Positions 479 to 31,297 of a stretch of 35,410 nt of DNA are shown here, piece after piece. Positions within the stretch are counted from its first letter, which is position 1; each line of letters starts with the position of its first letter. Made by a program: the position numbers and the translations under genes. The notes under the pieces are model-generated. The model was not told where the DNA came from. It saw only the letters and a program-made list of their open reading frames with translations, and ran no database searches. This DNA is from Prevotella sp. (lineage in GTDB: Bacteria > Bacteroidota > Bacteroidia > Bacteroidales > Bacteroidaceae), in NCBI GenBank assembly GCA_017474485.1, contig JAFVHO010000024.1, positions 1 through 35,410 on the forward strand. Reading direction: 5' to 3'.

Positions 479-487
479 CAAAATAAA

Positions 488-515
488 GTGAAAAGTGAAG
501 AGTGAAAAGTGAAAA
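488..515 (+). repeat. Four-unit 7-mer tandem array
   Basis: The units are GTGAAAA, GTGAAGA, GTGAAAA and GTGAAAA, without interruption. The array lies between the divergent DMP19-like and plug-like genes. The same word recurs at 24598-24618 and (minus strand) 30099-30119. Confidence 0.9.
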
Positions 516-542
516 ATTTGCTACCGCTTACAAAATTTCTAT

Positions 543-570
543 AAACTCTAAACTATAAACTCTAAACTTT
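543..570 (+). repeat. Four-unit 7-mer tandem array (AAACTnT)
   Basis: The units are AAACTCT, AAACTAT, AAACTCT and AAACTTT. The array ends 3 bases before the -7 element of the plug-like gene, so it occupies the spacer and -33 region of that promoter. Its word differs from the array 28 bases upstream but the period is the same. Confidence 0.9.
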
Positions 571-5528: not shown

Positions 5529-5544
5529 AAACGGGAAAACGGGC
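5529..5544 (-). repeat. Two-unit 8-mer in an operon spacer
   Basis: Plus-strand units AAACGGGA and AAACGGGC lie in the 30-base gap between the di-haem oxidoreductase stop and the ccsA-like start. It is a weak member of the spacer-array class and could be chance. Confidence 0.5.
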
Positions 5545-7300: not shown

Positions 7301-7314
7301 ACAATTCCTCATTT

Positions 7315-7346
7315 TCTCACTTTCTCACCTTCTCACTTTCTCACCT
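7315..7346 (-). repeat. Four-unit 8-mer spacer array
   Basis: TCTCAC recurs with exact 8 bp period at 7315, 7323, 7331 and 7339 on the plus strand (GTGAGA-type units on the coding strand). It overlaps the imelysin stop codon (7345-7347) and runs to the start region of the di-haem oxidoreductase, filling the spacer. Confidence 0.9.
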
Positions 7347-8598
7347 ACTCTTCCGTTTCCCAATCTTCGTCATCCTCGAAATTGATGTTCCAGATGGTAC
7401 AGCAATACTTCACGAAGGGCGATGGCATGCTGCCGATACCCTCAATAGCAGACGTATAGGCATTCTCCACCTTCTGGTTGACAACATCGCTCTGGACACT
7501 GGCAAAGAAATTGTGGAAGCTATACTGGTGGGCTGACTCATTGGTAGAGCCCAGCCATACATTACGGATGGAACGGATATTATCACAGAAGTCACTGATG
7601 GAGTTGTAGCTATAGGGCGACTCCACGTATGACACGTCACCAGCCGAGAAGGGGTTGGCAATCTTAGCCGTACCCACCTCATTGGCAATAGCCACACACG
7701 AACCCTCGTCGTTACTCAGCACCTGGGCAATAGCTGCCTTCAATGTTGAGAATGAACTGCCCGAACCGCTGATACCAGCCTTGGTCAGGTTCTCGGCAAA
7801 CGACAGGCCTTTCTCTGTCTGATAGTCCAGACCAGCATCCTGGACTACCTTGAGACGACTGCTGTTGGCACCTCCGTCCCAAGCGCACTGCAACTGGAAG
7901 GTGCGCTGCTTCAGCAGGGTACAGATGGTCTGGGCGTAGGCCAGTTCCTGTGCACCGCTGATGTGCTCGAAGTTCTTATAGGTATCATTGCCCTGAAGTT
8001 CAGCTACCTTACGAGGCTGACCATCACGGAACAGGATAAACTCCAATGCGTGGAAACCCAGAATGGTGGCATCCTCAAGCATATCGTCGTTCATACCGTT
8101 ATTGAAGTAGCTCAGCAACAGCGAACGGTTCAGAGGCCATGAGTCGATAGTGGGGTCAATATCGAAGTCGCTGGCTGCACCCATTAAGAAAGCTTCCGAC
8201 TGCTCCCAGTACTTTCGGGCTTGCTTGAAATCTTCGCAGGCACTGTTAATCTGAGCTTGCGTAATGGTTTTGACGGTCAGACCGTTCAGGGTCTTCTCAA
8301 GTGCCTCTGTCTCGTTAGCCAGATTGGTGTAGGTGGGCACAATCACATTGCTAACCAGATTCTGCAAGACCTGACGCAGATAGTCCTCCTGAGTTTCTGT
8401 CAGTTTTGAGGATGCAATGGTGGCATTAGCAGCTTCGAGCTGAGTCACCACACTGCCACAAGCGTTAACAGCCGTCATACCGTACGTACGGTCTTTGTAC
8501 TTGTCAACGTTGTCATTTCCGTTGTTGTCACTGTCACTGCTGCATGCAGCGAATGTCATGCCCATCAGTAGGGCCATTGAATAAATGATCTTTTTCAT
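7345..8598 (-). CDS. Imelysin family lipoprotein
   Basis: This 417-residue protein has a lipoprotein signal (MTFAACSSDSDN, lipobox FAAC near residue 19). It carries the imelysin GxHxxE motif as GFHALE at 181-186, which sits in the cleft thought to bind a metal or ligand. It also has QARKYWEQSEAFLMG, typical of the first imelysin helical repeat, and a second half with AHQYSFHNFFASV. The family was first named as peptidase M75, but structures lack a protease site and link it to iron uptake. It lies between the porin and the di-haem oxidoreductase in one operon, which supports an iron or haem-related role at the outer membrane or in the periplasm. Confidence 0.88.
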   Translation of the reverse strand: MKKIIYSMALLMGMTFAACSSDSDNNGNDNVDKYKDRTYGMTAVNACGSVVTQLEAANATIASSKLTETQEDYLRQVLQNLVSNVIVPTYTNLANETEALEKTLNGLTVKTITQAQINSACEDFKQARKYWEQSEAFLMGAASDFDIDPTIDSWPLNRSLLLSYFNNGMNDDMLEDATILGFHALEFILFRDGQPRKVAELQGNDTYKNFEHISGAQELAYAQTICTLLKQRTFQLQCAWDGGANSSRLKVVQDAGLDYQTEKGLSFAENLTKAGISGSGSSFSTLKAAIAQVLSNDEGSCVAIANEVGTAKIANPFSAGDVSYVESPYSYNSISDFCDNIRSIRNVWLGSTNESAHQYSFHNFFASVQSDVVNQKVENAYTSAIEGIGSMPSPFVKYCCTIWNINFEDDEDWETEE

Positions 8599-8625
8599 TG
8601 TTATCTATATATAAATTATGTGGTT

Positions 8626-8665
8626 AATATCTTAATATCTCAATTTCTCATTCTCTCAATCTCTC
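8626..8665 (-). repeat. Five-unit 8-mer spacer array
   Basis: Plus-strand units are AATATCTT, AATATCTC, AATTTCTC, ATTCTCTC and AATCTCTC. The array abuts the porin stop codon (8668-8670) and fills most of the gap to the imelysin start at 8598. Confidence 0.9.
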
Positions 8666-8667
8666 AA

Positions 8668-9936
8668 TTACAAAAAGAATCCCTCGTATGCCACACCGAT
8701 ATTCACGCTGGGCTCGTCGTTATAGATGCTCTTCAGCAGTCGCTTGGAGTATTCTGCCTTGATGACGATTTGTGGCACTGGATGATAGTTCACGCCCGCT
8801 GCCAGACGCTTCACCTCCGTATAGCCATAGTCAGTACCCTTGGTCTTGCTGGCATAGGGGTTATACTGCTCATAGCGTCCGAAGACATACAGTTTCCTGT
8901 TATCCTCACGCATCTGCGGAATCTGCGAGAAGACGTCGTAGCCTGCCTCAATGCCTATAGCATACGCATTCTTCGACACGAAAGCAGAATGCTTGTAGGG
9001 TGATTTCGAATTCAGTCGGTTATACACATACTTCAATTGTTCTGCATCGCTCAGATAGCCATAGTCGGCCTGTCCGCGGACAATCCAGTTGTGGGCTTTA
9101 TAGGTGAAGTCAATGGCACCAATGGCCACCGCCCCTTTGTATTCTTCATCTACGCCATTGGCATTACGCGGATAGCTGTTGCCGATGGCATGACCGTAGT
9201 AGCCGCTTAGTCCGATGCGCAAACCAGGAATCGAGTAGTTGTCTATACGCAAGGAGGCAGCATACTTGTTGGCAACGTCAAATTCCATAGGCGATTTATG
9301 TCCCTTACGAATCCAGCCAGTGTTGGTGAATTGGTCGGCATTCAGTCCTGCCAGCAGCTGAGCCTCGTAGCGGAAGTCCTTATAGCGTCCCCAGAACGAC
9401 ACACCCGTCTGATGCCACGTCGATGGCATGATGGTGTTCTCACCCTCTGGACGATAAACGGTAAAGAAGTTCAAGGGTTCGTGGTGCGCATTGTTCAGTC
9501 CTACAGGCACCACGATATGTCCTGCGCGGATGTTGGCCCATTGGCCGAAGGATTTCTGAATCCAGAACTGTTCCAGTTCTACCTCACCACCTTTCTCGGT
9601 TTCCTGTTCCCATTCGCCGCCTTCCTCGTCTTCCTTCTCGTAGGCTATACCATTGCCTCCATGTTCGAACTCTATCTCAGTACCGAGGCTCCAGCCCTTG
9701 CCAAAGTCATACCCAAGATAGATGACGGCATGGGGAATATCAAAGCGTCCGTGACTGGGGTCATTCTTATGTTCCTCGGGCTGACTGTAGCGACTGACGT
9801 GGTCACTATAATAGTTTCGTGAAAAAACAGCCTCGCCATAGCCTCCGACACTCAGTCGTTTGTCTTGAGCTGTGACATTCATGGTTGATAGTACAATAAA
9901 TGCTGCTATCGCTGTGATCAATCTTTCATTTTTCAT
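8668..9936 (-). CDS. Outer-membrane porin-like beta-barrel protein
   Basis: This 422-residue protein has a signal peptide ending in NVTAQ and alternating beta strands ending in GVAYEGFFL, as in outer-membrane barrels. RLSVGGYGEAVFSRNY at the mature N-terminus and FWIQKSFGQWANIRAGHIVVPVG (here abbreviated to its core WIQKSFGQWANIRAGH) resemble phosphate-selective/OprP-type porins. An acidic insert, rich in E between residues 125 and 150, is unusual for the family and could attract cations. It is the first gene of the operon. Upstream in-frame codons to 10017 are rejected because the -7 element at 9965-9972 lies between them and this ATG. Confidence 0.8.
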   Translation of the reverse strand: MKNERLITAIAAFIVLSTMNVTAQDKRLSVGGYGEAVFSRNYYSDHVSRYSQPEEHKNDPSHGRFDIPHAVIYLGYDFGKGWSLGTEIEFEHGGNGIAYEKEDEEGGEWEQETEKGGEVELEQFWIQKSFGQWANIRAGHIVVPVGLNNAHHEPLNFFTVYRPEGENTIMPSTWHQTGVSFWGRYKDFRYEAQLLAGLNADQFTNTGWIRKGHKSPMEFDVANKYAASLRIDNYSIPGLRIGLSGYYGHAIGNSYPRNANGVDEEYKGAVAIGAIDFTYKAHNWIVRGQADYGYLSDAEQLKYVYNRLNSKSPYKHSAFVSKNAYAIGIEAGYDVFSQIPQMREDNRKLYVFGRYEQYNPYASKTKGTDYGYTEVKRLAAGVNYHPVPQIVIKAEYSKRLLKSIYNDEPSVNIGVAYEGFFL

Positions 9937-9948
9937 TTTTCTTTTCTC
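9921..9948 (-). repeat. Four-unit 7-mer array spanning the porin start codon
   Basis: Plus-strand units are ATCTTTC, ATTTTTC, ATTTTTC and TTTTCTC. On the coding strand the units GAAAAAT/GAAAGAT supply the start codon and the first codons (MKNER). Confidence 0.8.
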
Positions 9949-13734: not shown

Positions 13735-13738
13735 GAGA

Positions 13739-13773
13739 AATTAGTAATTAGTAATTAGAAATTAGTAATTATG
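13739..13773 (-). repeat. Five-unit 7-mer spacer array (AATTAGT)
   Basis: Plus-strand units are AATTAGT, AATTAGT, AATTAGA, AATTAGT and AATTATG. The array lies in the truA to EamA spacer and stops 4 bases from the EamA ATG. Confidence 0.92.
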
Positions 13774-13784
13774 ATTACCATAAG

Positions 13785-15094: not shown

Positions 15095-15800
15095 CGGGTT
15101 CGAGGTTATCGATATCGAGGATACGAAGTTCCAAGGCGCGAACCACCAGACGCGTGGCATTCACACTCTCGCCACCCGGAAAGAGCTTACGCACCAACTC
15201 GTTCTGTCGTTTCTCCAGACTCTTCACACCAAATGGCATGCCTCGCAACGTGGTTATCTGTTCCTTGGTATAACCTAAAGCCAGGTGACGAAGGAAACGT
15301 TCGTCATACTCATCAATCTCGTAATTGATCAATGCCTCCTGACGAGCCAACTGTGAAGAGACAGCATGTTTGAAACGCTCGACAATCTTTTCGAGAATGG
15401 GCTCGTTGAACACCAACTGTTTGCCCTCCATCACAGCCATCACGTCGCGACGGGTCAGCAGTTCACCACTTTTCAGGATAATACCATCGGCACCCGCATC
15501 AAGCACGTCGACCCATAGTTTCTCGTTCAGTATCTCGCCCGTAAAGATGAGCACCTTTACCTGTTTGTAAAGTTCCTTGGTCTGACGACAGATTTCGACA
15601 CCGACGGTGGTAGAACCGCCAAGTCCAAGGTCAAGTAACACGAGGTCCGGCTGTTGCTGTTTGATGAGCCGCCAGAAGCTGGCCTCATTTTCTGCTGTCC
15701 CGATAACCTCAGCTTCGGGAATCTCATGACGTACAATGCCTTCAGTACCTTTAAGTTCGAGGGGCACGTCCTCGACAATAATCATCTTAAATTTTTCCAT
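15084..15800 (-). CDS. Response regulator with receiver and HTH domains
   Basis: This 238-residue protein starts with a receiver domain: acidic pair in MIIVEDV, phospho-acceptor aspartate in LVLLDLGLGG (near residue 57), T in LIFTGE and the conserved lysine in GIILKSGE. The C-terminal part (about 165-225) is a LuxR-like helix-turn-helix with LALGYTKEQITTLRG. It is the partner of the sensor just upstream: the two genes overlap by 14 bases, so expression is coupled. A second possible start (M6) lies directly after the sensor stop codon. Confidence 0.9.
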   Translation of the reverse strand: MEKFKMIIVEDVPLELKGTEGIVRHEIPEAEVIGTAENEASFWRLIKQQQPDLVLLDLGLGGSTTVGVEICRQTKELYKQVKVLIFTGEILNEKLWVDVLDAGADGIILKSGELLTRRDVMAVMEGKQLVFNEPILEKIVERFKHAVSSQLARQEALINYEIDEYDERFLRHLALGYTKEQITTLRGMPFGVKSLEKRQNELVRKLFPGGESVNATRLVVRALELRILDIDNLEPDAE

Positions 15801-18800
15801 TGTATCTGGGTAATGTAATAGTTATTTCGTTTTCTTCTACCGTAATGCCACAACCACGACGATGCGTAGCCTCACCATGATCACGTAGTATCTGGCGACA
15901 GAGCAACCGATCTATATCTGACTTGAATGTAGCCTTCATCGTATAGGTCACATACTGCTCGTCCTTAACATTAGCCTGCACCTCTGAAGGCTTGATGATT
16001 TCAAAGAGGTAGCGGAGCATATTCTCATCCCCAATGACTTGTTGCCCATAGAGCGTTACAGGATGTACATGCAGACGAACTTGCTCAACCTGTCGCATGG
16101 CCTGTTCGCTCAGGATGCCATATAACTGACGATAATATTGCGTTACCTCGCCCAATGCATTCACATCGCCATTATCCACCAACTGACGAATACGATCAGG
16201 ATAGTACATGGTTTCATGTTTGAGGGCAGACAGGCAGTTGTCGAGCACATTATTGGCCACATGCAGCTTGGCTGCTTCCAGCTCAGAACGGTGCAGTTCG
16301 TCGTCAGCCATCTCAATATTATCAAGCTGCATACGCTCACGCTTGAACCGTTCGTTAAGACGATGACGATAATAGAGCATGTAGTAGGCAGGCACTATCA
16401 GCAGTAACATGACAATTAGCAGAATCATAGCTATACGCTTGTTGATCTGCGACTGCTGCATCGTGCGACAATAGTCTGCCAGCGTATTATCTGCTGACAT
16501 TTCCTTGAACAGTTGTGTATATACCTTATTATTATAATTATAGAGCGACCACTGATGAAGCGACAAGGCGGCAACGGCACTCTCGTTACGAATGTCGAGA
16601 ATAATCTGATAGTTGATGTCCACGCCGTCAAGATACCATTGTATCTCAGCAGGCATCTGGGTACTATTGCCTTGCGGCTGCATAAGCAGCTGACTATTGG
16701 GGCGCAAGGTGTTGTACTGCATATTAAGATACTTATAACAGGAATCAGCATACTGCAATGTTTGTTCGTAGTTACCATTGACATTACAGAAATAAGCTGA
16801 ATCGGCAAAGATATGTGCACGTTCTATAGGGGTATCGGATGATGTATGACGGATGTCGGCTGCTTGCATAGCGCCAGAAGCCATTAGCCAATAGCCAATA
16901 GCCAAAAGCCTGACAATGCCCTTGGGTAGTCGGAAGAAGAAGCGCGATCCCCTGCCCTCTTCGCTCTCAGCAGACAACATACAGACATTGAACAACTGGC
17001 TCATCTTGCGGTATTTCTCAATAATTCCCTTACAATTCATCAGTCCGAAACCATGTGAACGCGTTCCCTTGTCCGAAACCTTATGCTCAAAGACATGAGC
17101 CAAAGTATCTTCACTCATGCCACAGCCGGTATCTTTAACTGATATTTCCACATAGTCGTTGCTGACAGTAGCAGAAACGTTGACGCTGCCACCACGTTCA
17201 GTAAACTTGCGGGCATTGTCAGCCAATGTGTTAATCATAAAGAGCGTCAACACACGATCGGCTTTCACAGCTGCATCAACAGGTTCCACCTGTAATTCGA
17301 CTCCTTTCATCTCAAAACTCGTCTTGCTACGGGCAATGATGTCAAAAAGTTCCTGTAAACGGAAACTCTCAATATGTAGGCTCAGCTCTCCTTGACGCAG
17401 TTGAATCCAACGTGTCAACAGGTTATTCTGCTGATTGATGTTATCAGTAAGTTCACGTATATAATCCAGCTGGCTATCATCATTCGAATAATGGTCAACG
17501 GTATAAAGAATACGATCTATAAGAGGCGTGATACTCATGATGAGTGAAACCTTTGCACGTTGCTCCAAATGTCGACGTTCGTTATTGCTGACACGCAAAC
17601 GTGCTTCAGCAACCTCTTCGTTCTTTTGTTCCAGCAGGTCGTCGAGTGCATGGTCCTCCTTCTGGCGCTGGTTCAGATGATTGAACAGCCACAACAAGAA
17701 CAGCAACAGGATAATGGCAACCAAAACGGCCAATATCATCCAGTTGAGCTGGCGAGCCGATTTATCCAAGGTATCAGCACGAGCCTCTAACTCACGATCC
17801 TGACGCGTCTGCTCCTGCAGGTCTATATAGATATTACGATTGTAGTCGCTTTGTTGCTTGTCGTTGACAGCTGCGTATGCTACAGACAGCTGTTCACGAA
17901 TACTGGCCACCAAGTCGGGAGCCTGATTGATACGCTTGTCCTCTAAAGCCTTAGACAGGTAGACCAATGCCTGTTCGTTGTCATCTAAGGCATGATAGCA
18001 GGAAGCCAATGTACGATAGGCACCCGCAATCTGATAGACATCGCCATATTTCTTAAATAACGCCAGCGCCTCTTCCGCCAGTTTGATGTCATCCTCATGC
18101 TCAGCCAAAGCCTCCTTGGCCTGTGCCTCAAAGTAAGTGTAATGATAACGCTGGGCAATAGATAGGCAGCGGTGCAGATAATCTATCTCCTCGGCATGTA
18201 TCTGGGTGGGCGTACCCTCAGTCAAGATACCGCCAGCACCAACGTTATACAGGTAGTTCAGATATTGTGCCGTATCACGACGCAGTTCGTGAAGGTTCAA
18301 CTGTTGAAGCGCCTCAATGGATTGGCGTTCCAATCCTACATAATAATAATAGGTGGAGTTAACAATGGCGAACTCCGTTTCTGCATAGCGCAATCGGCCC
18401 TGTTGACGTTCATCCAGTTTGTCACGTTCTTCGTCAATACGTTTCATACAGGTGATAGCCCGTTCACGGAAGTCGTGATAATCCTTATTGCGGGAGCGAC
18501 GCTGACACAAACGCATCTGCTGCACATAGCACACCAGGAGTTCCAACTGATTATCTGTCATTTCTGGAATCTGGTTCAGATAGTCCTCAGCAACCTTGTA
18601 ATCCATCCTGACCATCTTGACAAAGGCCAGATTGTTCAGGCCCTCAGCAGTTTCCTTCGCCGCTAAGGCATAGTGTTCTACAGAGTCAATATCGCGGTAG
18701 TGATAGGCATATGATAAAGTATTCAGCCTGTCCATTGCCTGCCTATCTGGCGGTGAACAAGCTGAAAGAAGAAAAAGACCCAGTACGGCCAGAAGCCATA

Positions 18801-18823: not shown

Positions 18824-19491
18824 TTATGCGCGAGCCTTAGCACAGTATCCGAGTGCCTCCTTGCACTTGTCGGTGACATACTGCCAGTCGCCAGCCTTTA
18901 CCTTATCGCTGGGGAAGAGCTTAGAGCCCATACCAACACAGAAGACGCCTGCCTTGAACCACTTGGTCAGGTTCTCCTCCTCAGGAGCTCACCACCCGTC
19001 ACCATGATCTTCGACCAAGGCATGGGAGCCATCAGACCCTTAATGAGATTCGGACCTACAACGTCGCCAGGGAATACCTTTGTGAAGTCGCAACCAACCT
19101 CCTGTGCCTTTCCAATCTCAGAAGGAGTCAGACAACCTGGGCAATAGGTTACGCAACGACGGTTGCAGACAATAGCGATATCGGGGTTGAACAGCGGACC
19201 TACCACGAAATTGGCACCCAGCTGGATGTACAGAGATGCTGTAGGAGCATCAACGACAGAACCAATACCCAGAGCCAGTTCAGGACATTCTTTGTTAACC
19301 CACTTTGACAGCTCACCGAATACCTCGTGAGCGAAGTCACCACGATTGGTAAACTCGAAGGCACGAACACCACCCTCATAGCAAGCCTTGATGACATTCT
19401 TACAAACTTCAACATCCTTGTTATAGAAAACAGGAACCATAGGTGCTTCGGCAATCTTTGCCATCACCTGAAATTTATCAAACTTTGCCAT
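18824..19491 (-). pseudogene. kdgA: KDPG/KHG aldolase with an apparent one-base deletion
   Basis: This gene would encode a 222-residue 2-keto-3-deoxy-6-phosphogluconate aldolase, which splits KDPG to pyruvate and glyceraldehyde-3-phosphate. The glutamate (E46, FEFTNRG) and Schiff-base lysine (K138, FTKVFPG) are intact. After VTGG (residue 167, about 18991) the frame shifts and stops at 18967. The remaining 55 residues, from [20 protein letters not shown] to CAKARA and TAA 18824-18826, lie in another frame and are well conserved. Restoring one base at about 18988-18990 gives VTGGVAPEEEN. The kinase (kdgK) and dehydratase (uxaA) of the same path are nearby and intact. The cause may be a sequencing or assembly error, a recent mutation, or less likely recoding. 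Confidence 0.85.
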
Positions 19492-19500
19492 TGCTTTTTT

Positions 19501-19524
19501 ACCTTTTAACCTTTTTACCTTTTA
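19501..19524 (-). repeat. Three-unit 8-mer spacer array (ACCTTTTn)
   Basis: Plus-strand units are ACCTTTTA, ACCTTTTT and ACCTTTTA. The array abuts the kdgK stop codon (19525-19527) and, with a T-run, fills the gap to the kdgA start at 19491. Confidence 0.88.
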
Positions 19525-20547
19525 TTAGCGCTGTACGCGTCCGTTAGCATTACCACCAGCCAGACTTTCTACCTCGTCAATACCTACCAGGTTGAAGTCA
19601 CCATTGATAGTGTGCTTCAGAGCAGAAGCAGCCACAGCAAACTCGAGAGCCTCGCCCTGAGTCTCCTTAGTCAGCAGACCGTGAATCAAACCACCAGAGA
19701 ACGAGTCACCACCACCAACGCGGTCGATGATAGGATTGATTTCGTAACGCTTTGACTGATAGAACTCCTTACCATCGTAGATCAATGCCTTCCAGCCGTT
19801 GAAGGTAGCACTATAGCTCTCACGCAGTGTAGAAACGACATACTTGAAGCCAAACTCCTTCATCATCTGTTTGAAGATGCCCTCGTAACCGGCAGCATCA
19901 GTCTGACCACCCTCTACGTCTGCATCAGGCTTGAAACCAAGACAGAGCTCTGCATCTTCCTCGTTACCAATGCACACATCAACATACTTCATCAGCGGAC
20001 GCATGATGGAGATAGCCTTCTCTGATGTCCACAGCTTCTTACGGAAGTTCAGGTCCACAGATACCGTTACCCCATGACGCTTGGCAGCCTCGCAAGCCAA
20101 CTTAGTCAGCTCAGCAGCCTTATCCGAGATAGCTGGTGTAATACCACTCCAGTGGAACCAAGCAGCACCCTCCATGATAGCGTCGAAGTCGAAATCCTTT
20201 GGATCTGCTTCAGCAATAGAACTGTGAGCACGATCGTAGATAACCTTTGAAGGACGCATACTTGCACCAGTCTCTGCATAATAGAGACCTACACGGTCGC
20301 CACCACGAGCGATGAACTGAGTGTTGACACCATAACGGCGGAGTGCATTCACTGCAATCTGGCCAATCTCGTGCTTGGGCAGCTTTGATACAAAGTAAGC
20401 CTCGTGACCATAATTAGCCACGCTTACAGCTACGTTAGCCTCACCACCACCAGGGATGATACGGAATGACTCACTCTGAATAAAACGGTCGTTGCCCATG
20501 GGCGACAGGCGGAGCATAATCTCACCTAAAGTTACAATCTTTGCCAT
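19525..20547 (-). CDS. kdgK: PfkB family sugar kinase, likely 2-keto-3-deoxygluconate kinase
   Basis: This 340-residue kinase has both PfkB signatures: GGGEANVAVSVANYG near the N-terminus and DRVGGGDSFSGGLIHGL with catalytic D281. Family and context point to phosphorylation of KDG to KDPG: the aldolase kdgA follows 33 bases downstream and the altronate dehydratase that makes KDG is on the divergent arm. It starts with MAKIVTLGEIMLRLSP, typical of KdgK. The promoter is 42 bases upstream and shares the intergenic region with the LacI-type gene, whose product probably controls both arms. Confidence 0.9.
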   Translation of the reverse strand: MAKIVTLGEIMLRLSPMGNDRFIQSESFRIIPGGGEANVAVSVANYGHEAYFVSKLPKHEIGQIAVNALRRYGVNTQFIARGGDRVGLYYAETGASMRPSKVIYDRAHSSIAEADPKDFDFDAIMEGAAWFHWSGITPAISDKAAELTKLACEAAKRHGVTVSVDLNFRKKLWTSEKAISIMRPLMKYVDVCIGNEEDAELCLGFKPDADVEGGQTDAAGYEGIFKQMMKEFGFKYVVSTLRESYSATFNGWKALIYDGKEFYQSKRYEINPIIDRVGGGDSFSGGLIHGLLTKETQGEALEFAVAASALKHTINGDFNLVGIDEVESLAGGNANGRVQR

Positions 20548-21816: not shown

Positions 21817-23313
21817 ATGGAACAAGCTACATTTCTTAAAATTAATCCTGCTGACTCAGTGGTGGTATGTCTGAGCGCTAAGAAGCAAGGTGACATCATT
21901 GAGGTGGATGGAAAGCAAATTACAGTCAATCAAGACACTCCAGCTGGTCATAAGGTGCTGATTGTCGACGTCAAACAAGGCGAGAACATTATTAAGTACG
22001 GTTATCCTATTGGTCATGCACGCGAGGACTTGAAGGCTGGCGACTGGGTGAATGAGAATAACCTGAAGACCAATCTCTCAGGAACACTCGAATACACATA
22101 TCAGCCAGTTAACGAGAAGCTTAGTATTAAAGACGAAAAGCGAAGCTTTAAAGGCTATGTCCGTAAGAACGGCGATGTTGGTGTGCGCAACGAGATCTGG
22201 ATTGTACCCACTGTAGGCTGTGTAAACGGTATTGCCGAACGCTTGGCTGAACAACTCCGTAAAGAGACTCATGAAGAAGGCATTGATGCCGTATGGACGT
22301 GGCATCATAATTATGGTTGTTCCCAGCTCTCTGAGGACCATGAAAATACTCGCAAGGTGTTGCGCGACATCTGTCTGCACCCCAATGCAGGTGGTGTACT
22401 GGTGCTGAGTTTGGGTTGTGAAAACAATCAACCTGAGGACTTCATGGCCATGTTGGGCGATTACGACAAGAGCCGCATCAAGTTGTTGGTTACCCAGCGT
22501 GTCGAGGGCGATGAGATGGAAGCAGGCATGCAGATTCTCCGTGAGCTCTATGCTCAGGCCAAGCAGGACAAGCGCGAGGACGTCAGTGTATCAAAGCTTC
22601 GTGTTGGATTGAAATGTGGTGGCTCCGACGGTTTCTCAGGCATCACCGCCAATCCGCTTGTTGGCGAATTCTCCGACTGGCTCGTGGCTCAGGGAGGTAC
22701 CAGTGTACTGACTGAAGTGCCTGAAATGTTTGGTGCTGAGACCATTCTGATGAACCGCTGTGAGAACAAGGAATTGTTCAATCAAACCGTCTCAATGATT
22801 AATAACTTCAAGAACTACTTCTTGTCGCATGGTGAACCCGTGGGCGAGAATCCCTCTCCAGGCAACAAGGCTGGTGGTATCTCAACCCTCGAAGATAAGG
22901 CTTTGGGCTGCACGCAGAAGTGTGGTAAGGCACCTGTTAGCGGTGTTATGGAGTATGGAGACCGTCTGCAGAACAGTGGCTTGAACCTGCTCTCTGCACC
23001 AGGCAACGATCTCGTAGCCTCTACTGCCCTCGCCTCTTGTGGTTGCCACATCGTACTGTTTACCACGGGTCGCGGAACGCCTTTCGGAACCTTCGTTCCT
23101 ACGATGAAAGTAGCTACGAATCCCGTACTCGCTAAGAACAAACCGCATTGGGTAGACTTCTCAGCTGGTCAATTGGTAGAAGGTCGCACCATGCAGGAGA
23201 TTGTTCCTGAGTTCATTGACAAGGTACTGGCTGTTGCTTCTGGCGAGAAGGCTCGTAATGAGGAGAACGGCTATCGTGAGATATCAATATTCAAGAACGG
23301 TGTGACGTTATAA
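21817..23313 (+). CDS. uxaA: Altronate dehydratase (UxaA family)
   Basis: This 498-residue protein dehydrates D-altronate to 2-keto-3-deoxygluconate in galacturonate breakdown. Residues 10-95 form the SAF domain; the rest is the UxaA/GarD catalytic part with GYVRKNGDVGVRNEIWIVPT, WHHNYGCSQL, LSLGCENNQPEDF and KCGGSDGFSGITANP, all standard for the family. The length matches full altronate dehydratases, so both parts are present in one chain. It overlaps the NhaC-type gene by one base (TAATG). Galactarate is an alternative substrate within the family, but kdgK and kdgA nearby favour altronate. Confidence 0.93.
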   Translation: MEQATFLKINPADSVVVCLSAKKQGDIIEVDGKQITVNQDTPAGHKVLIVDVKQGENIIKYGYPIGHAREDLKAGDWVNENNLKTNLSGTLEYTYQPVNEKLSIKDEKRSFKGYVRKNGDVGVRNEIWIVPTVGCVNGIAERLAEQLRKETHEEGIDAVWTWHHNYGCSQLSEDHENTRKVLRDICLHPNAGGVLVLSLGCENNQPEDFMAMLGDYDKSRIKLLVTQRVEGDEMEAGMQILRELYAQAKQDKREDVSVSKLRVGLKCGGSDGFSGITANPLVGEFSDWLVAQGGTSVLTEVPEMFGAETILMNRCENKELFNQTVSMINNFKNYFLSHGEPVGENPSPGNKAGGISTLEDKALGCTQKCGKAPVSGVMEYGDRLQNSGLNLLSAPGNDLVASTALASCGCHIVLFTTGRGTPFGTFVPTMKVATNPVLAKNKPHWVDFSAGQLVEGRTMQEIVPEFIDKVLAVASGEKARNEENGYREISIFKNGVTL

Positions 23314-24587
23314 TGAAAAAAGGACTCATCGCATTATCACCCCTCGTGGTGTTCATCCTTATGTATTTAGTCACCAGCATCATTGCTGGTGACTTCTACA
23401 AGGTGCCCATCACGGTGGCATTTATGGCAGCCTCGATGTATGCCGTCGTGGTTTGCGGCGGCTTGCCTCTGGGCAAACGCATCGACATATTCAGTCGCGG
23501 TGCCGGTAAGGGACAGATGATGCTGATGATCTGGATTTTCATTCTGGCAGGTGCTTTTGCCCATAGCGCTAAGGTAATGGGAGCTATTGATGCCACCGTC
23601 AACCTCTCATTGATGCTACTGCCTGGCAATATGCTTTTAGCCGGTCTTTTTCTGGCAGCCTGCTTTATTTCGTTGTCGGTGGGCACTAGTGTGGGAACGA
23701 TAGTGGCGCTGACGCCTATTGCAGCTGGCATTGCCTCACAAACAGATTCGTCGGTAGCCTTGGTAACTGCAGTTGTCGTAGGTGGCTCGTTCTTTGGCGA
23801 CAATCTTTCGTTCATATCCGATACCACCATAGCAGCTACACAGACGCAGGGGTGCCGTTTGAGCGACAAGTTCCGCGTCAACTCCTTCATTGTGATGCCT
23901 GCAGCCCTGATAGTTTTTGTGGCTTATCTGTTTATGGGTTCTGGCATACACTCACCACAAAATGTACCTGACGTTTCATTTGTCAAAGTAATACCTTATT
24001 TAATAGTATTACTGACTGCCATCTTCGGCATGAACGTAATGGCCGTACTGGCATTGGGTATATTGTCGAGCGGACTCATCGGACTCCTGACGTCCAGCTT
24101 CGACTTTTATGGTTGGATGGGCGCTATGGGCGAAGGTATCGTAGGGATGGGCGAACTCATTATCATTACGATGATGGCAGGCGGACTGCTCGAAATAATC
24201 AAGCAAAACGGCGGTATTGACTTCCTTATCCGTATACTCACCAGTCATGTCAGCAACAAGCGTGGAGCCGAGTTGTCAATAGCGGCCTTGGTGTCGATGG
24301 TTAATCTTTGTACGGCCAACAATACCGTTGCCATATTAACCGTTGGCGGTATTGCCAAGCAGATTGGCGACCGCTATGGCGTCGACAACCGCAAATGTGC
24401 TTCTATTCTCGATACCTTCTCTTGCACCATGCAGGGCATCATTCCCTATGGAGCCCAAATGCTGATGGCTGCCGGACTGGCACAGCTCAATCCAGTCAGT
24501 ATCCTGCCCTACCTCTACTATCCATTAGTTGTAGGCATTGCCGCCTTGCTTTCTATTATGTTGAGATATCCCAAACGTTACTCTTAG
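23313..24587 (+). CDS. NhaC family antiporter-like transporter
   Basis: This 424-residue protein has about eleven predicted membrane helices. SVGTSVGTIVALTPIAAGIA and GGSFFGDNLSFISDTTIAA are hallmarks of NhaC-type sodium/proton antiporters. Its coupling to uxaA (start overlaps the uxaA stop) suggests it may carry a hexuronate or its product, or drive such transport with sodium. That is inference from position; the family itself is known for sodium/proton and, in some members, malate/lactate exchange. The stop codon TAG is part of a small hairpin (24585-24597). Confidence 0.85.
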   Translation: MKKGLIALSPLVVFILMYLVTSIIAGDFYKVPITVAFMAASMYAVVVCGGLPLGKRIDIFSRGAGKGQMMLMIWIFILAGAFAHSAKVMGAIDATVNLSLMLLPGNMLLAGLFLAACFISLSVGTSVGTIVALTPIAAGIASQTDSSVALVTAVVVGGSFFGDNLSFISDTTIAATQTQGCRLSDKFRVNSFIVMPAALIVFVAYLFMGSGIHSPQNVPDVSFVKVIPYLIVLLTAIFGMNVMAVLALGILSSGLIGLLTSSFDFYGWMGAMGEGIVGMGELIIITMMAGGLLEIIKQNGGIDFLIRILTSHVSNKRGAELSIAALVSMVNLCTANNTVAILTVGGIAKQIGDRYGVDNRKCASILDTFSCTMQGIIPYGAQMLMAAGLAQLNPVSILPYLYYPLVVGIAALLSIMLRYPKRYS

Positions 24588-24597
24588 CGCTTCGCTA
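24585..24597 (+). repeat. Small hairpin containing the nhaC-type stop codon
   Basis: TAGCG and CGCTA pair around a 3-base loop; a similar GGGC/GCCC hairpin is found at 30122-30132. Both are followed by GTGAATA/GTGAAAA-type 7-mer arrays. Confidence 0.6.
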
Positions 24598-24618
24598 ATG
24601 AAAAGTGAATAGTGAAGA
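24598..24618 (+). repeat. Three-unit 7-mer spacer array (GTGAAnA)
   Basis: Units are ATGAAAA, GTGAATA and GTGAAGA. With the hairpin before it, the array fills the whole gap from the nhaC-type stop to the next ATG at 24621. Confidence 0.88.
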
Positions 24619-24620
24619 AT

Positions 24621-24983
24621 ATGGACATTATATTCAGAAATCTGCAACGACTAGTTTTCAGCGACGAGTTTTATGGTCAGGAAGCTATAGAACCCATGTC
24701 CGAATGGAAATGGAACAAACTCTATGAGTTTACCATAGCCTATGGCATAGGCCCTTGGGTAGCCGATGGTTTCCGCCGTTATAGTGATGATTTCTTTTTG
24801 CAGCCCTCCGATTCGCTGCGCGAAAAGTTCCTGGCCTTGAATGGTGAGCGTAATCAAGAGTTGTTGGGCAAGTTCAAATTGAACTTAATGCGTTCGAAGC
24901 ATATTATGAATCGTTTTACACGAGAGTCGTTACAAGCTTATTTCAACGACTTCATGCACACTATTCGTAATATCGAGGAATAG
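24621..24983 (+). CDS. Small protein of unknown function
   Basis: This 120-residue cytoplasmic protein begins MDIIFRNLQRLVFSDEFYG. It is rich in aromatic and charged residues (WKWNKLYEFTIAYGIGPWVA) and looks helical; there is no signal peptide. The opening resembles the start of some nucleotidyltransferase-like proteins, but no catalytic motif is present and I do not assign it. The ATG at 24621 is preferred to the GTG at 24612, which lies inside the 7-mer array. It probably follows the nhaC-type gene in one transcript. Confidence 0.7.
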   Translation: MDIIFRNLQRLVFSDEFYGQEAIEPMSEWKWNKLYEFTIAYGIGPWVADGFRRYSDDFFLQPSDSLREKFLALNGERNQELLGKFKLNLMRSKHIMNRFTRESLQAYFNDFMHTIRNIEE

Positions 24984-25031
24984 CTGTTGGCTATTGGCTA
25001 TTAGCTATTAGCTGTTAGCGATGGGCTGTAG
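24983..25031 (+). repeat. Seven-unit 7-mer array between convergent genes
   Basis: Units are GCTGTTG, GCTATTG, GCTATTA, GCTATTA, GCTGTTA, then the decayed GCGATGG and GCTGTAG. It starts on the last base of the upstream stop codon and ends 3 bases before the GH25 stop, filling the whole spacer. Confidence 0.92.
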
Positions 25032-25033
25032 GT

Positions 25034-30098: not shown

Positions 30099-30119
30099 TA
30101 TTCACTTTTCACTATTCAC
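30099..30119 (-). repeat. Three-unit 7-mer spacer array (GTGAAnA word)
   Basis: Plus-strand units are TATTCAC, TTTTCAC and TATTCAC (GTGAATA, GTGAAAA, GTGAATA on the coding strand). The array follows a small hairpin in the nspC to SH3 spacer, the same order as at 24585-24618. Confidence 0.88.
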
Positions 30120-30121
30120 TA

Positions 30122-30132
30122 GGGCGAAGCCC
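30122..30132 (-). repeat. Small GGGC/GCCC hairpin after nspC
   Basis: GGGC and GCCC pair around GAA (TTC on the coding strand), 4 bases after the nspC stop codon. There is no T-run, so it is a weak terminator at most. Confidence 0.6.
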
Positions 30133-30136
30133 GCTT

Positions 30137-31297
30137 TTAGTCCATACGGTTTCGGTAATCTTCATAAGTAAAACGGCGCAGCAGTTCGAGCTGTCCGTCA
30201 GCATGCAACATGCAGAGCGAGGGATGCGTGATGCCGTTGAAGGTGTTGGTCTTGACGGTAGTGTAGTGTATCATGTCCTCAAAGATGACTTCGTCGCCCA
30301 CCTGCAGTTCACGAGGGAATTGCCAGTAGCCCATGAAGTCGCCTGCCAAACAGCTGTTGCCGCCAAGGCGATATATGGCAGCGGACAACAACGGATTTTC
30401 TCGGACTGTCCGTGTTTGTCCGCTGTTGTCCGCTGCTATATCTATATGCTCAGCGCCCCTTACATCGGGATAATACGGCATCTCAAGGCAGTCGGGCATG
30501 TGGCACGTGAAGCTGACATCAAGTATAGCCGTGCGGATGCCTTTGTCCTCAACGATATCCACCACACTCGACACCAGCGGACCAGTCTGCCACGCAAAGG
30601 CACTGCCAGGCTCGAAGATGACCTTCAGATGCGGATAGCGTTCGTGGAACCCCTGAACGACGCGTACCAGCCGTTCGATGTCGTAATCAGCCCGTGTCAC
30701 CAAGTGGCCACCACCGAAGTTAATCCACTCTATTTGTGGAAACCAGCGCGAGAACTTCTGTTCTATATGCTCAAGAGTACGCTCAAAGACATCAGACCCA
30801 CTTTCACAGTGGCAGTGGCAATGGAAGCCACGAATGTCGCTGGGCAGCGTGTCGGGCAATTTATCAACTGAGACGCCAAAGCGTGTACCTGGGGCACATG
30901 GATTATAGAGCAGTGTACCCACCTCAGAGTATTCCGGGTTGACCCTCAAACCCAGCGAACACTCCCCTGCCCGCTTATGGAACCGCTCGTACTGCGAGAG
31001 CGAGTTGAACGTCAAGTGACTGGAACAACGCACGATTTCATCAATCTCCTCGTCCTTATATGCTGGCGAGAAGGTGTGCGCCTTCGAGCCGAATTCCTCC
31101 AAAGCCAGACGAGCCTCGCTGAGCGAACTGGCTGTTGTCGACTGGATGTATTCGCGGAAGATGGGAAAGGTCTTCCAAAGGGCAAAAGCCTTGAACGCCA
31201 GTATCCATTCTGACTGCGTGCGACGGGCTACGTCGCTTATGAGTTCGAGGTTGCGTCGCAACTTCTGCTCCTCTATCATATAGTAAGGTGTATTCAT
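30137..31297 (-). CDS. nspC: Carboxynorspermidine decarboxylase
   Basis: This 386-residue PLP enzyme decarboxylates carboxynorspermidine or carboxyspermidine, the last step of the alternative polyamine pathway. The PLP lysine is K36 (ILAFKAFALW). Other family blocks are FHCHCHCESG, INFGGGHLVT, VIFEPGSAFAW, LDVSFTCHMPDCLEMPYYP, YRLGGNSCLAGD and EDMIHYTTVKTNTFNGI. Between RGAE and YRLGG there are about 25 residues (286-308 region) where relatives have only a short linker; the extra DNA is a 59 bp palindrome (30378-30436). The partner dehydrogenase gene is not in the window. The promoter lies 163 bases upstream, leaving a long leader. Confidence 0.92.
   Translation of the reverse strand: MNTPYYMIEEQKLRRNLELISDVARRTQSEWILAFKAFALWKTFPIFREYIQSTTASSLSEARLALEEFGSKAHTFSPAYKDEEIDEIVRCSSHLTFNSLSQYERFHKRAGECSLGLRVNPEYSEVGTLLYNPCAPGTRFGVSVDKLPDTLPSDIRGFHCHCHCESGSDVFERTLEHIEQKFSRWFPQIEWINFGGGHLVTRADYDIERLVRVVQGFHERYPHLKVIFEPGSAFAWQTGPLVSSVVDIVEDKGIRTAILDVSFTCHMPDCLEMPYYPDVRGAEHIDIAADNSGQTRTVRENPLLSAAIYRLGGNSCLAGDFMGYWQFPRELQVGDEVIFEDMIHYTTVKTNTFNGITHPSLCMLHADGQLELLRRFTYEDYRNRMD
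30378..30436. repeat. 59 bp palindrome inserted in frame in nspC
   Basis: GCAGCGGACAACA (30378-30390) and TGTTGTCCGCTGC (30424-30436) are perfect inverted repeats. The inner pair CGGAC/GTCCG (30402-30406, 30408-30412) shares the same centre at 30407. The middle of each arm matches only in part. It encodes most of the extra linker of NspC. Confidence 0.85.

What the first reader, a model, noticed from the sequence alone, without database searches (positions are those of the whole stretch)
24983..25031. Spacer arrays: tandem 7- or 8-mers fill stop-to-start gaps across the window, each with its own word
Exact-period arrays occur at 488-515, 543-570, 7315-7346, 8626-8665, 9921-9948, 13739-13773, 19501-19524, 24598-24618, 24983-25031 and 30099-30119, plus a weak one at 5529-5544 and one inside a gene (16879-16913). 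The period is 7 or 8, the words mostly differ (GTGAAAA, AAACTCT, TCTCACTT, AATATCTC, AATTAGT, ACCTTTTA, GCTATTA), and most arrays begin at the upstream stop codon and end near the next start. That is too regular for chance and is not explained by promoters, terminators or CRISPR. Possible causes are a slippage process limited to untranslated spacers, a re-initiation or RNA-processing element, or a templated insertion system.
Basis: seen in the sequence. Interest (0 to 1): 0.85.

Follow-up and report, generated by a model that had tools for sequence, protein, structure and literature searches.

The report
Fast-changing seven/eight-letter repeats between genes
In this Prevotella-like bacterium many gaps between genes, and some loops inside core enzymes, are filled with short runs of a seven- or eight-letter DNA word; in related species the same place often holds a different word or none, so the runs look like a restless mutational product shaped by where stop codons are allowed, and not like a fixed signal.

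Summary
The arrays are real: nine 7/8-mer arrays in the window, none in 100 shuffles, no other period at that threshold. They are not 'each with its own word': words recur from a shared lexicon (AGTGAAN, AATTGAN, RGTAAAAA, AWTGAGAN). In 36 same-genus species (1.40 Mb, not a random draw) I found 184 arrays, 132 in spacers and 52 in called genes. In co-directional spacers the stop-rich strand is the mRNA strand (77 sense, 15 anti, 12 tie) and all three frames are stopped in 84 of 104. Inside genes the opposite holds (34 anti, 13 sense, 5 tie). Orthologous spacers of relatives carry different words, no array, or 7-, 8- or 21-nt copy-number steps. Arrays sit at a junction that overlaps in other species, in loops of IspG and a HemN/HemW-like enzyme, and in signal-peptide-like N-termini. 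Best reading: a heptamer/octamer simple-sequence-repeat class made by slippage-like copying with a 7-8-nt step and filtered by translation. Unsolved: the shared lexicon and the wobble base of several word families. Closest known: TAACTGA repeats (Beggiatoaceae) and GGGAATC repeats (Xanthomonas). New variant of a known kind.

The parts
485..515 (+). 7-mer array, AGTGAAN family, in the divergent spacer 463-585
542..568 (+). 7-mer array, TAAACTN, same spacer, 17 nt before the start at 586
7308..7344 (-). 8-mer array, GTGAGAAN on the mRNA strand, directly after the stop of the upstream gene (7345-8598, -)
   Evidence: no array at this spacer in G083 (flanks only 72-77 % alike)
8624..8668 (-). 8-mer array, AWTGAGAN on the mRNA strand, begins at the stop codon of 8668-9882 (-)
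   Evidence: 7-mer AGTGAAT array at the same spacer in G083
9924..9945 (-). 7-mer array, AATGAAA on the minus strand, upstream of 8668-9882 (-)
13739..13771 (-). 7-mer array (AATTAGT on +, ACTAATT on the mRNA strand) in the spacer 13735-13784; no array in G083, AGTGAAG-like in G007, TTAACTC/TTCACTC-type in G198
16879..16910 (-). 7-mer array (TTGGCTA on the coding strand) inside gene 15787-18735 (-), coding RLLAIGYWLMA between a HATPase domain and DUF5113
   Evidence: array at the same place in G083, G198, G203, G219, G105, G037 and, with another word, G101
19496..19523 (-). 8-mer array, RGTAAAAA on the mRNA strand, filling the stop-to-start gap between genes 19525-20547 (-) and 18967-19491 (-)
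   Evidence: 30-species comparison
24584..24598 (+). hairpin TTAGCGCTTCGCTAA that holds the stop codon of 23313-24587 and abuts the next array
   Evidence: sequence; shared with G007 and G198
24599..24618 (+). short 7-mer array, AGTGAAN (about 2.5 units); one unit shorter than in G198 and G007
   Evidence: below the scan threshold
24983..25031 (.). 7-mer array GCTATTR/GCTGTTR in the convergent spacer 24984-25033, beginning in the stop codon of 24621-24983; longer (105-nt spacer) and mixed in G083, 8-mer in G007
30101..30121 (-). 7-mer array, AGTGAAN on the mRNA strand, 15 nt after the stop of 30137-31297 (-)
   Evidence: passes at score 10 only
30122..30134 (-). hairpin GCGGGCTTCGCCC next to the array at 30101-30121
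   Evidence: sequence

Best explanation
The arrays are a heptamer/octamer class of simple sequence repeats, typically 4-5 copies long, made and remade all over these genomes by slippage-like tandem copying with a 7- or 8-nt step. They arise at gene junctions, some of which overlap or nearly touch in relatives, and at loops, linkers and N-termini of proteins. Translation then decides what survives. Next to a gene end, arrays are kept in the orientation whose units hold a stop codon; because 7 and 8 are not multiples of three, every frame is closed and neither neighbour is damaged. Inside genes mainly the reverse, stop-free orientation in an in-frame block survives and becomes part of the protein. 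Copies are gained and lost in whole units, and a spacer can lose or replace its word between related species. Shown: period, excess, lexicon, orientation, unit-step differences, presence/absence between species. Inferred: slippage as the maker, the direction of change (gain or loss), selection by translation as the filter, and absence of a dedicated function. Not explained: why words come from a shared dictionary and why several word families have one free base per unit.
For: Period: 89 (period 7) and 43 (period 8) spacer arrays in 36 species against 0-19 for every other period from 4 to 24; shuffled spacers of 26 of these species give 0.15 and 0.2 for periods 7 and 8. Unit-step differences: 21 nt between G083 and G198 with flanks 95-98 % alike, 7 nt at 24598 between own and G198/G007, 8 nt at L011:1148 between own and G198. 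Presence/absence: the uxaA|nhaC junction overlaps or touches in 9 of 30 species (own among them) and holds 39-67 nt arrays in 5 (G083, G198, G203, G040, G088, classed by eye); L011:2352 is 48 nt longer in own than in G198 and G203, and a 42-nt array (6 x 7) in a GH115 gene is missing in G083. Filter: 84 of 104 co-directional arrays stop all three sense frames against 28 of 104 antisense; genes show the reverse. Adjacent units are more alike than units in shuffled order, 466.3 against 452.1, sd 2.0.
Against: Words are shared between loci far beyond chance (165 identical pairs against 7.1) and in-gene words match spacer words in 18 of 47 cases (random 1.6); plain local slippage predicts words taken from local sequence. 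Variation inside arrays is concentrated in one column; plain point mutation does not predict that. In-gene length differences of +12, +15, +18 or +27 nt are not whole units, so replacement must be invoked. The adjacency test is biased, because the array finder itself rewards adjacent matches. Only a handful of clean unit steps were seen, all between species, and no mutation was observed as it happened.
Confidence: 0.57

Rival explanations
1. Translation element: the array is kept because it closes all three frames behind a stop codon (fail-safe termination) or lets a terminating ribosome re-initiate step by step through overlapping start/stop quadruplets (NTGA, TAATG) to the next gene.
For: Arrays start near the stop codon (61 of 79 within 12 nt) in the stop-bearing orientation; 53 of 104 co-directional arrays have two or more NTGA/TAATG on the sense strand against 12 of 104 antisense; in G083, G198 and G203 the apparent start codon of nhaC (TTG) lies at the end of the array.
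Against: Related species have no array, a bare overlap or a hairpin at the same junction; 51 of 104 arrays, the GGTAAAAA family among them by its sequence, lack repeated start/stop quadruplets; the same words sit inside genes, mostly reversed; the sense preference is not seen more than 30 nt from the stop (0 sense, 6 anti, 4 tie, and 4 more anti set aside as signal-peptide-like).
Confidence: 0.2
2. Dedicated writing system: an enzyme with a nucleic-acid template, or a mobile element, writes about 30 nt of repeated units from a dictionary into junctions and loops, each unit a fixed core plus one unspecified base.
For: Shared lexicon; in the AGTGAAN, AATTGAN and GTAAAAAN families most variant cells of spacer arrays lie at one position (15 of 22, 28 of 45, 22 of 28); the few in-gene cells agree for two of these (6 of 7, 2 of 3) and not clearly for the first (3 of 8); order of variants is independent between arrays of one word, as if each were written anew; blocks of 42-48 nt present or absent.
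Against: PF00078 reverse transcriptases are found in 9 of 20 array-rich genomes and in 13 of 20 without the AGTGAAN pattern; Y1 transposases in 15 of 20 and 10 of 20; no common flanks or target duplications noticed by eye in the alignments; unit-step differences fit slippage; several families (ATTGAGAN, GCTATTN, AGTTAAN, GGTGAGN) do not have a single free position.
Confidence: 0.13
3. Binding sites for an RNA- or DNA-binding regulator, as proposed for TAACTGA repeats.
For: Conserved six- or seven-base cores with fixed pitch and positions near starts and stops.
Against: Unrelated words at the same junction in different species; presence in loops of enzymes.
Confidence: 0.05
4. Assembly or sequencing artefact of draft genomes.
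For: The window's genome is incomplete (72.7 %, 236 contigs).
Against: Same arrays at the same places in independent genomes; one- and two-contig genomes (G045, G117, G265; contig counts) also have AGTGAAN matches (1, 8 and 10).
Confidence: 0.01

Closest known systems
TAACTGA direct repeats of marine Beggiatoaceae, some Cyanobacteria and five Bacteroidetes (PMC4679880; abstract, passages and sections 3, 7, 9, 15, 24 read)
   Same: Seven-base units, 2-6 copies, mostly intergenic; forward units put stops in all frames; some sets overlap an upstream stop codon; those interior to ORFs are mostly reversed; patchy across phyla. In Gramella, Aequorivita and Elizabethkingia the paper also notes other heptamer repeats and, for some, relatives with shorter array-free spacers, so turnover in Bacteroidetes was seen before.
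   Different: There one word dominates and related heptamers are rarely repeated; here 44 distinct 7-mer words in spacers of the sample and 8-mers as well, a free base in some families, word replacement at one junction across many species, and arrays in loops of conserved enzymes and signal-peptide-like N-termini. TAACTGA itself is the unit of 0 of 136 7-mer arrays here.
GGGAATC repeats of Xanthomonas and GGGGA(T/C)T of Nostoc (PMC4692102; abstract and passages seen)
   Same: Heptamers, the majority of four units, with variable positions inside the unit; most lie between the same genes in two species, with extensive length and sequence variation; inverted pairs occur.
   Different: Those are G-rich and studied as quadruplex formers; these are A/T-rich, have many words, and also lie in coding loops.
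Long simple sequence repeats of 5-11 nt, heptamers most abundant (Mrazek et al. 2007, known to me here only through PMC4679880 and PMC4692102; the paper is not held)
   Same: Period 7 excess; polymerase-contact slippage was proposed there according to both citing papers.
   Different: The citing passages mention no shared lexicon, octamers, orientation by stop codons or word turnover; the original was not seen.
Tandem repeats of archaeal Borgs (PMC9879509; abstract and outline seen)
   Same: Fast-evolving, recently formed arrays in spacers and in reading frames.
   Different: There repeats in ORFs are said to be under strong selection and to give perfect amino-acid repeats, on extrachromosomal elements; here units are short and imperfect.
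Rickettsia palindromic elements (recalled; the search listed no paper on them)
   Same: Repeats inserted in frame in protein-coding genes.
   Different: Those are palindromes of about a hundred bases or more (recalled); the small hairpins seen by eye in IspG loops are nearer to them than the arrays are.

Membership tests
Heptamer long simple sequence repeats (bacterial SSR of 5-11 nt) | Head-to-tail copies of a 5-11 nt unit beyond chance, period 7 leading | tested here: met
Heptamer long simple sequence repeats (bacterial SSR of 5-11 nt) | Copy number changes by whole units | tested here: met
   7, 8 and 21 nt differences; three clean sites, between species only; other sites differ by non-unit lengths
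Plain local slippage | Words derived from local sequence at each site | tested here: not met
   shared lexicon
TAACTGA repeats | Unit TAACTGA | tested here: not met
   0 of 136 7-mer arrays of the sample have this unit; the doubled word is in 4 of 453 loci, none of them from the same-genus set
TAACTGA repeats | Stop-bearing strand forward in spacers, reversed in ORFs | tested here: met
   (as a tendency: 77:15 in co-directional spacers, 13:34 in genes)
Rickettsia palindromic elements / REP-type palindromes | Each copy is a palindrome | tested here: not met
   array units are not palindromic by reading the sequences listed
CRISPR | Repeats of about 20-40 nt separated by unique spacers (recalled definition) | tested here: not met
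   units of 7-8 nt with no spacers
Product of a reverse transcriptase (diversity-generating or telomerase-like) | A PF00078 reverse transcriptase in the genome | tested here: not met
   PF00078 not found in own genome (72.7 % complete), G007, G083, G198, G213, G226, G296 and 4 other array-rich genomes; divergent enzymes outside this model are not excluded

The most novel reading that the evidence does not exclude
A template-directed array writer: these bacteria hold a dictionary of 6- or 7-base cores, and an unknown enzyme writes four or five copies, adding one unspecified base per copy, into gene junctions and protein loops. That would give shared words, a single free base at the same place in each unit of the main word families, and an independent order of that base in every array, on either strand and in both coding and non-coding DNA.
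Probability: 0.13. Interest if true: 0.9.

Novelty: new variant of a known kind. Interest (0 to 1): 0.62.

Why it matters
Heptamer repeats have been reported as over-represented in many bacteria since 2007 (as cited in PMC4692102 and PMC4679880), with polymerase slippage only proposed as the cause. This genus offers a natural experiment: dozens of words, hundreds of species, related pairs with whole-unit differences, arrays at gene junctions that overlap in relatives, and rewritten loops in enzymes such as IspG and in signal-peptide-like N-termini. It makes two open questions testable: why the step is 7 or 8, and whether such arrays are a source of new spacers, loops and signal peptides. It also warns annotators that odd inserts such as NSQLSILNSQ, FTLHSSL or FLPFYLFT in these proteins can be DNA repeats read in frame.

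Tried and rejected
Chance and composition: rejected by shuffles. Word private to each array: rejected. Arrays confined to spacers: rejected. My worry that in-gene arrays were miscalled shadow reading frames: 9 of 10 genes tested have Pfam families (L015:1685-2593 had none), and 2 of 3 (one weak; L449:1391-3034 had none). Block copying of whole arrays between loci: a 35-nt identity between the HemW-like gene and an unrelated reading frame looked like it, but the order of variant units is not shared beyond shuffled order (P 0.75 in own, 0.37 in all), so I dropped it. Reverse transcriptase, Y-family polymerase (39 of 40 genomes) and Y1 transposase as the maker: no clear match with array-rich genomes (20 rich and 20 poor genomes; the rich ones are less complete; 'rich' and 'poor' rest on the AGTGAAN pattern alone, and G016, counted poor, has one array of another word). 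Ribosome relay as the general explanation: only about half of the arrays have repeated start/stop quadruplets. Literature: ten searches listed no paper on such arrays in Prevotella; I read listings, and most subscription papers are not held, so this is no proof that none is in print.

Full report
What was checked. A period scan of the window gives nine arrays, all of period 7 or 8; 100 dinucleotide shuffles give none of these periods. Tandem Repeats Finder lists nearly the same arrays plus weak repeats of period 9-12. Genes were called with a home-made codon-usage caller, so starts are approximate. The gene names kdgK, kdpgA, uxaA and nhaC are my reading of the sequences and come from no call; that the genus is Prevotella-like is inferred (two Prevotellaceae matches among 80 named loci).

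How general it is. The window plus stretches of 20 other contigs of the same genome (244 kb) hold 54 arrays of period 7/8 and 19 of all other periods from 4 to 24; five sets of shuffles gave none of period 7 or 8. In 36 same-genus species (1.40 Mb, of which 161 kb spacer) there are 136 arrays of period 7 (89 spacer, 47 gene), 48 of period 8 (43, 5), 34 of period 9 (10, 24; multiples of three are what genes allow) and 40 of period 21-22 (33, 7), which look like another class. The sample is not random: one batch was chosen by kinship around kdgK, another mostly from species with many AGTGAAN sites. By my arithmetic the density is about 0.82 per kb of spacer and 0.04 per kb of gene. Density varies: 8 of 26 species had no 7/8-mer array, though most of those were seen over 20 kb or less. 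The AGTGAANx3 pattern has 64 matches, overlapping ones counted, in the own genome, is found in 175 of 299 same-genus genomes with 0 to 200 matches each, in 36 of 247 of the order sample and in 20 of 198 of the phylum sample, own included. The tool's control, the pattern read backwards, gives 13 in own and exceeds the pattern in some genomes (for example G222); it is itself a word of the same style. The distribution is patchy.

Words. Among 126 arrays of 26 species, 165 pairs share an identical unit (rotation and strand ignored) against 7.1 expected for random spacer words, maximum 20 in 1000 draws; sharing is 7.5 % within and 2.5 % between species. Of 47 in-gene 7-mer arrays, 18 use exactly a word of a spacer array and 41 come within one base, against 1.6 (maximum 6) and 17.6 (maximum 29) for random 7-mers of the same genes. 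Within arrays, variation is concentrated in one column: 185 of 357 variant cells in spacers (null 143, maximum 160 of 2000) and 69 of 139 in genes (null 56, maximum 69, so equal to the best shuffle). For AGTGAAN spacer arrays 15 of 22 variant cells lie at N, for AATTGAN 28 of 45, for GTAAAAAN 22 of 28. For in-gene arrays the numbers are small, 3 of 8, 6 of 7 and 2 of 3, so the first family does not show the pattern clearly there. ATTGAGAN, GCTATTN and AGTTAAN vary at other positions too, and GGTGAGN shows no preferred column. The order of variant units is not shared between arrays of the same word (P 0.75 in own, 0.37 in all species), so intact blocks are not seen to be copied. Adjacent units are more alike than in shuffled order (466.3 against 452.1, sd 2.0), with the caveat that the finder favours this.

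Orientation. In co-directional spacers 77 arrays have more stop codons on the mRNA strand, 15 on the other, 12 tie; four signal-peptide-like arrays were set aside before this count. All three frames are stopped in 84 of 104 sense and 28 of 104 antisense. The preference is 49:4 (2 ties) for arrays that start before the end of the stop codon, 28:5 (6 ties) for those starting 0-30 nt after it, and 0:6 (4 ties) beyond. For the first class this is partly by definition, since the array supplies the stop; some of the last class may be N-terminal coding with a miscalled start. At convergent spacers 7 of 9 follow the nearer gene end; at divergent spacers there is no preference (4, 4, 3 ties). In genes it is reversed, 34 anti, 13 sense, 5 tie.

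Turnover in spacers. The kdgK|kdpgA spacer (window 19492-19524) was read in 30 species, own included, the best-matching loci of 398 genomes searched: 13 hold a 7/8-mer array, one a 9-mer, one a 12-mer, six are shorter than 15 nt and nine have no array at score 10, though some of these look like decayed or mixed repeats by eye. Words differ: RGTAAAAA (own and at least one other), TTCATAA, ATCGTAAT (three species), TAATTGA, CTCAAAT, ACTAGAAAT (read by eye). The uxaA|nhaC junction was read in 35 loci, 30 species after removing five doubles: it overlaps or touches in nine (own, G007, G219, G374, G281, G025, G035, G099, G181), holds arrays of 39-67 nt in five (G083, G198, G203, G040, G088, by eye) and other spacers in 16. 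G083 and G198, 89.7 % alike over 16 kb, differ there by 21 nt with flanks 95-98 % alike. The spacer at 24588-24620 is one 7-nt unit shorter in own than in G198 and G007. At L011:1148 G198 has 8 nt more than own and G083 is 44 nt shorter; at L011:2352 G198 and G203 are 48 nt shorter, while G083 has a spacer of similar length without an array. The tally over six directed species comparisons was: spacers 13 no array, 9 other word, 3 same word; genes 10 no array, 1 other, 6 same. Some of the 'no array' rows look like failed anchors (own L011:15370 against G083, where one search shows an array in the same gene, and the own-G203 rows for L011:3381 and 3411), and G083/G198 sites are counted from both sides.

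Inside genes. Pfam families are found in nine of ten tested array-bearing genes, among them GcpE (IspG), a radical-SAM protein with a HemN C-terminal domain, a pyridine-nucleotide oxidoreductase, an HflX-like GTPase, Memo/AMMECR1, GH115 and GH2. In IspG one loop before LADAILQAARIKFTKTEYISCPGCGRT was compared in 31 rows, one of them cut short: the scan at score 10 finds heptamer arrays in own, G083, G198, G392, G226 and G025; G203 has a shared but undetected version; G281, G265 and G082 show ACTAGTNNN 9-mers by eye, and G281 also has an ACTAG 9-mer in its kdgK spacer; about ten rows have small hairpins such as TTCGCGG...CCGCGAA by eye. The compared stretch is 222 nt in many rows; with arrays it is +27 in own, +18 in G392, +15 in G198 and 0 in G083, G226 and G025; other inserts make it longer still in some rows. 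In the HemN/HemW-like gene 10 of 30 rows have a 7-mer array at score 12, at several different sites; the loop that holds the array of own is 12 nt longer than the commonest form (126 nt, 10 rows), and array-bearing loops of others are +15, +21 and +42. A GH115 loop has 42 nt of array in own, a different insert in G198 and nothing in G083. Octamer arrays read in the reverse direction encode hydrophobic N-termini such as FLPFYLFTFL in six own genes and one of G007, which I take for signal-peptide cores; no signal-peptide predictor was run.

Mechanism. Whole-unit steps, presence at junctions that overlap in relatives, and the dominance of periods 7/8 fit slippage-like copying; heptamer slippage linked to the polymerase contact was proposed by Mrazek et al. 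(cited in PMC4679880 and PMC4692102, whose passages I read; the original is not held). A one-unit gain of 7 in a needed gene would shift the frame, so in-gene arrays need events of three units or compensated replacement; +21 and +42 fit the former, +12, +15, +18 and +27 do not. What slippage does not explain is the shared lexicon and the single free base of the main families. No candidate enzyme was found: PF00078 in 9 of 20 array-rich and 13 of 20 array-poor genomes, IMS polymerases in 39 of 40, Y1 transposases in 15 of 20 and 10 of 20.

Place among known things. The stop-forward, ORF-reversed rule was described for TAACTGA repeats (PMC4679880, sections 7, 9, 15 read), and that paper also saw other heptamer arrays and array-free relatives in some Bacteroidetes. 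Heptamers, mostly of four units, with variable positions and strong sequence variation between the same genes are described for Xanthomonas (PMC4692102, passages read). For Prevotella bryantii a functional Shine-Dalgarno interaction was not found and unstructured leaders were proposed to guide initiation in Bacteroidetes (PMC3155529, abstract read), which may make such spacers tolerant of A/T-rich arrays; that is inference. I therefore file the finding as a new variant of heptamer simple sequence repeats.

Noticed in passing
window 24584-24598 and 30122-30134; L070:4744-4785: Small GC hairpins with a CTT/CTTC loop (TTAGCGCTTCGCTAA, GCGGGCTTCGCCC) stand directly before AGTGAAN arrays; other small hairpins lie in IspG loops of other species (by eye).
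   Followed up: partly
L011, L014, L021, L060, L066, L072, L117, L122 and others: A second class of tandem repeats of 21-22 nt occurs in spacers (33 of period 21-22), without the concentration of variation in one column seen in the 7/8-mers (28 of 112 cells, null 31).
   Followed up: no
L148 (G281 IspG) and L080 (G281 kdgK spacer): A 9-mer with core ACTAG fills both a coding loop and a spacer in one species, so species-specific words cross between gene and spacer.
   Followed up: partly
L012:5192, L014:4991 and 7017, L021:1514, 6309 and 15060, L446:3423: Octamer arrays read in reverse supply the hydrophobic core of what look like signal peptides or lipoprotein signals (FLPFYLFT...).
   Followed up: partly
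G083, G198, G203 uxaA|nhaC junction: The downstream gene seems to start at a TTG at the end of the array, where own and G007 have ATG.
   Followed up: no
A long form of the IMS polymerase (about 470-580 aa, IMS score about 84-103 bits) looks commoner among array-rich genomes (11 of 20) than poor ones (3 of 20); counted by eye after the fact.
   Followed up: no
nhaC|24621 spacer, own, G007, G198: This spacer is identical apart from one 7-nt unit although the region differs by about 13-18 % between these species, which hints at recombination or constraint.
   Followed up: no
listings, for example G244:C19, G297:C25, G205:C7, G214:C5, L234: AGTGAAN arrays come several times in facing pairs (+ then -) some 60-170 bp apart, as if each of two converging gene ends had its own array; genes there were not looked at.
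   Followed up: no
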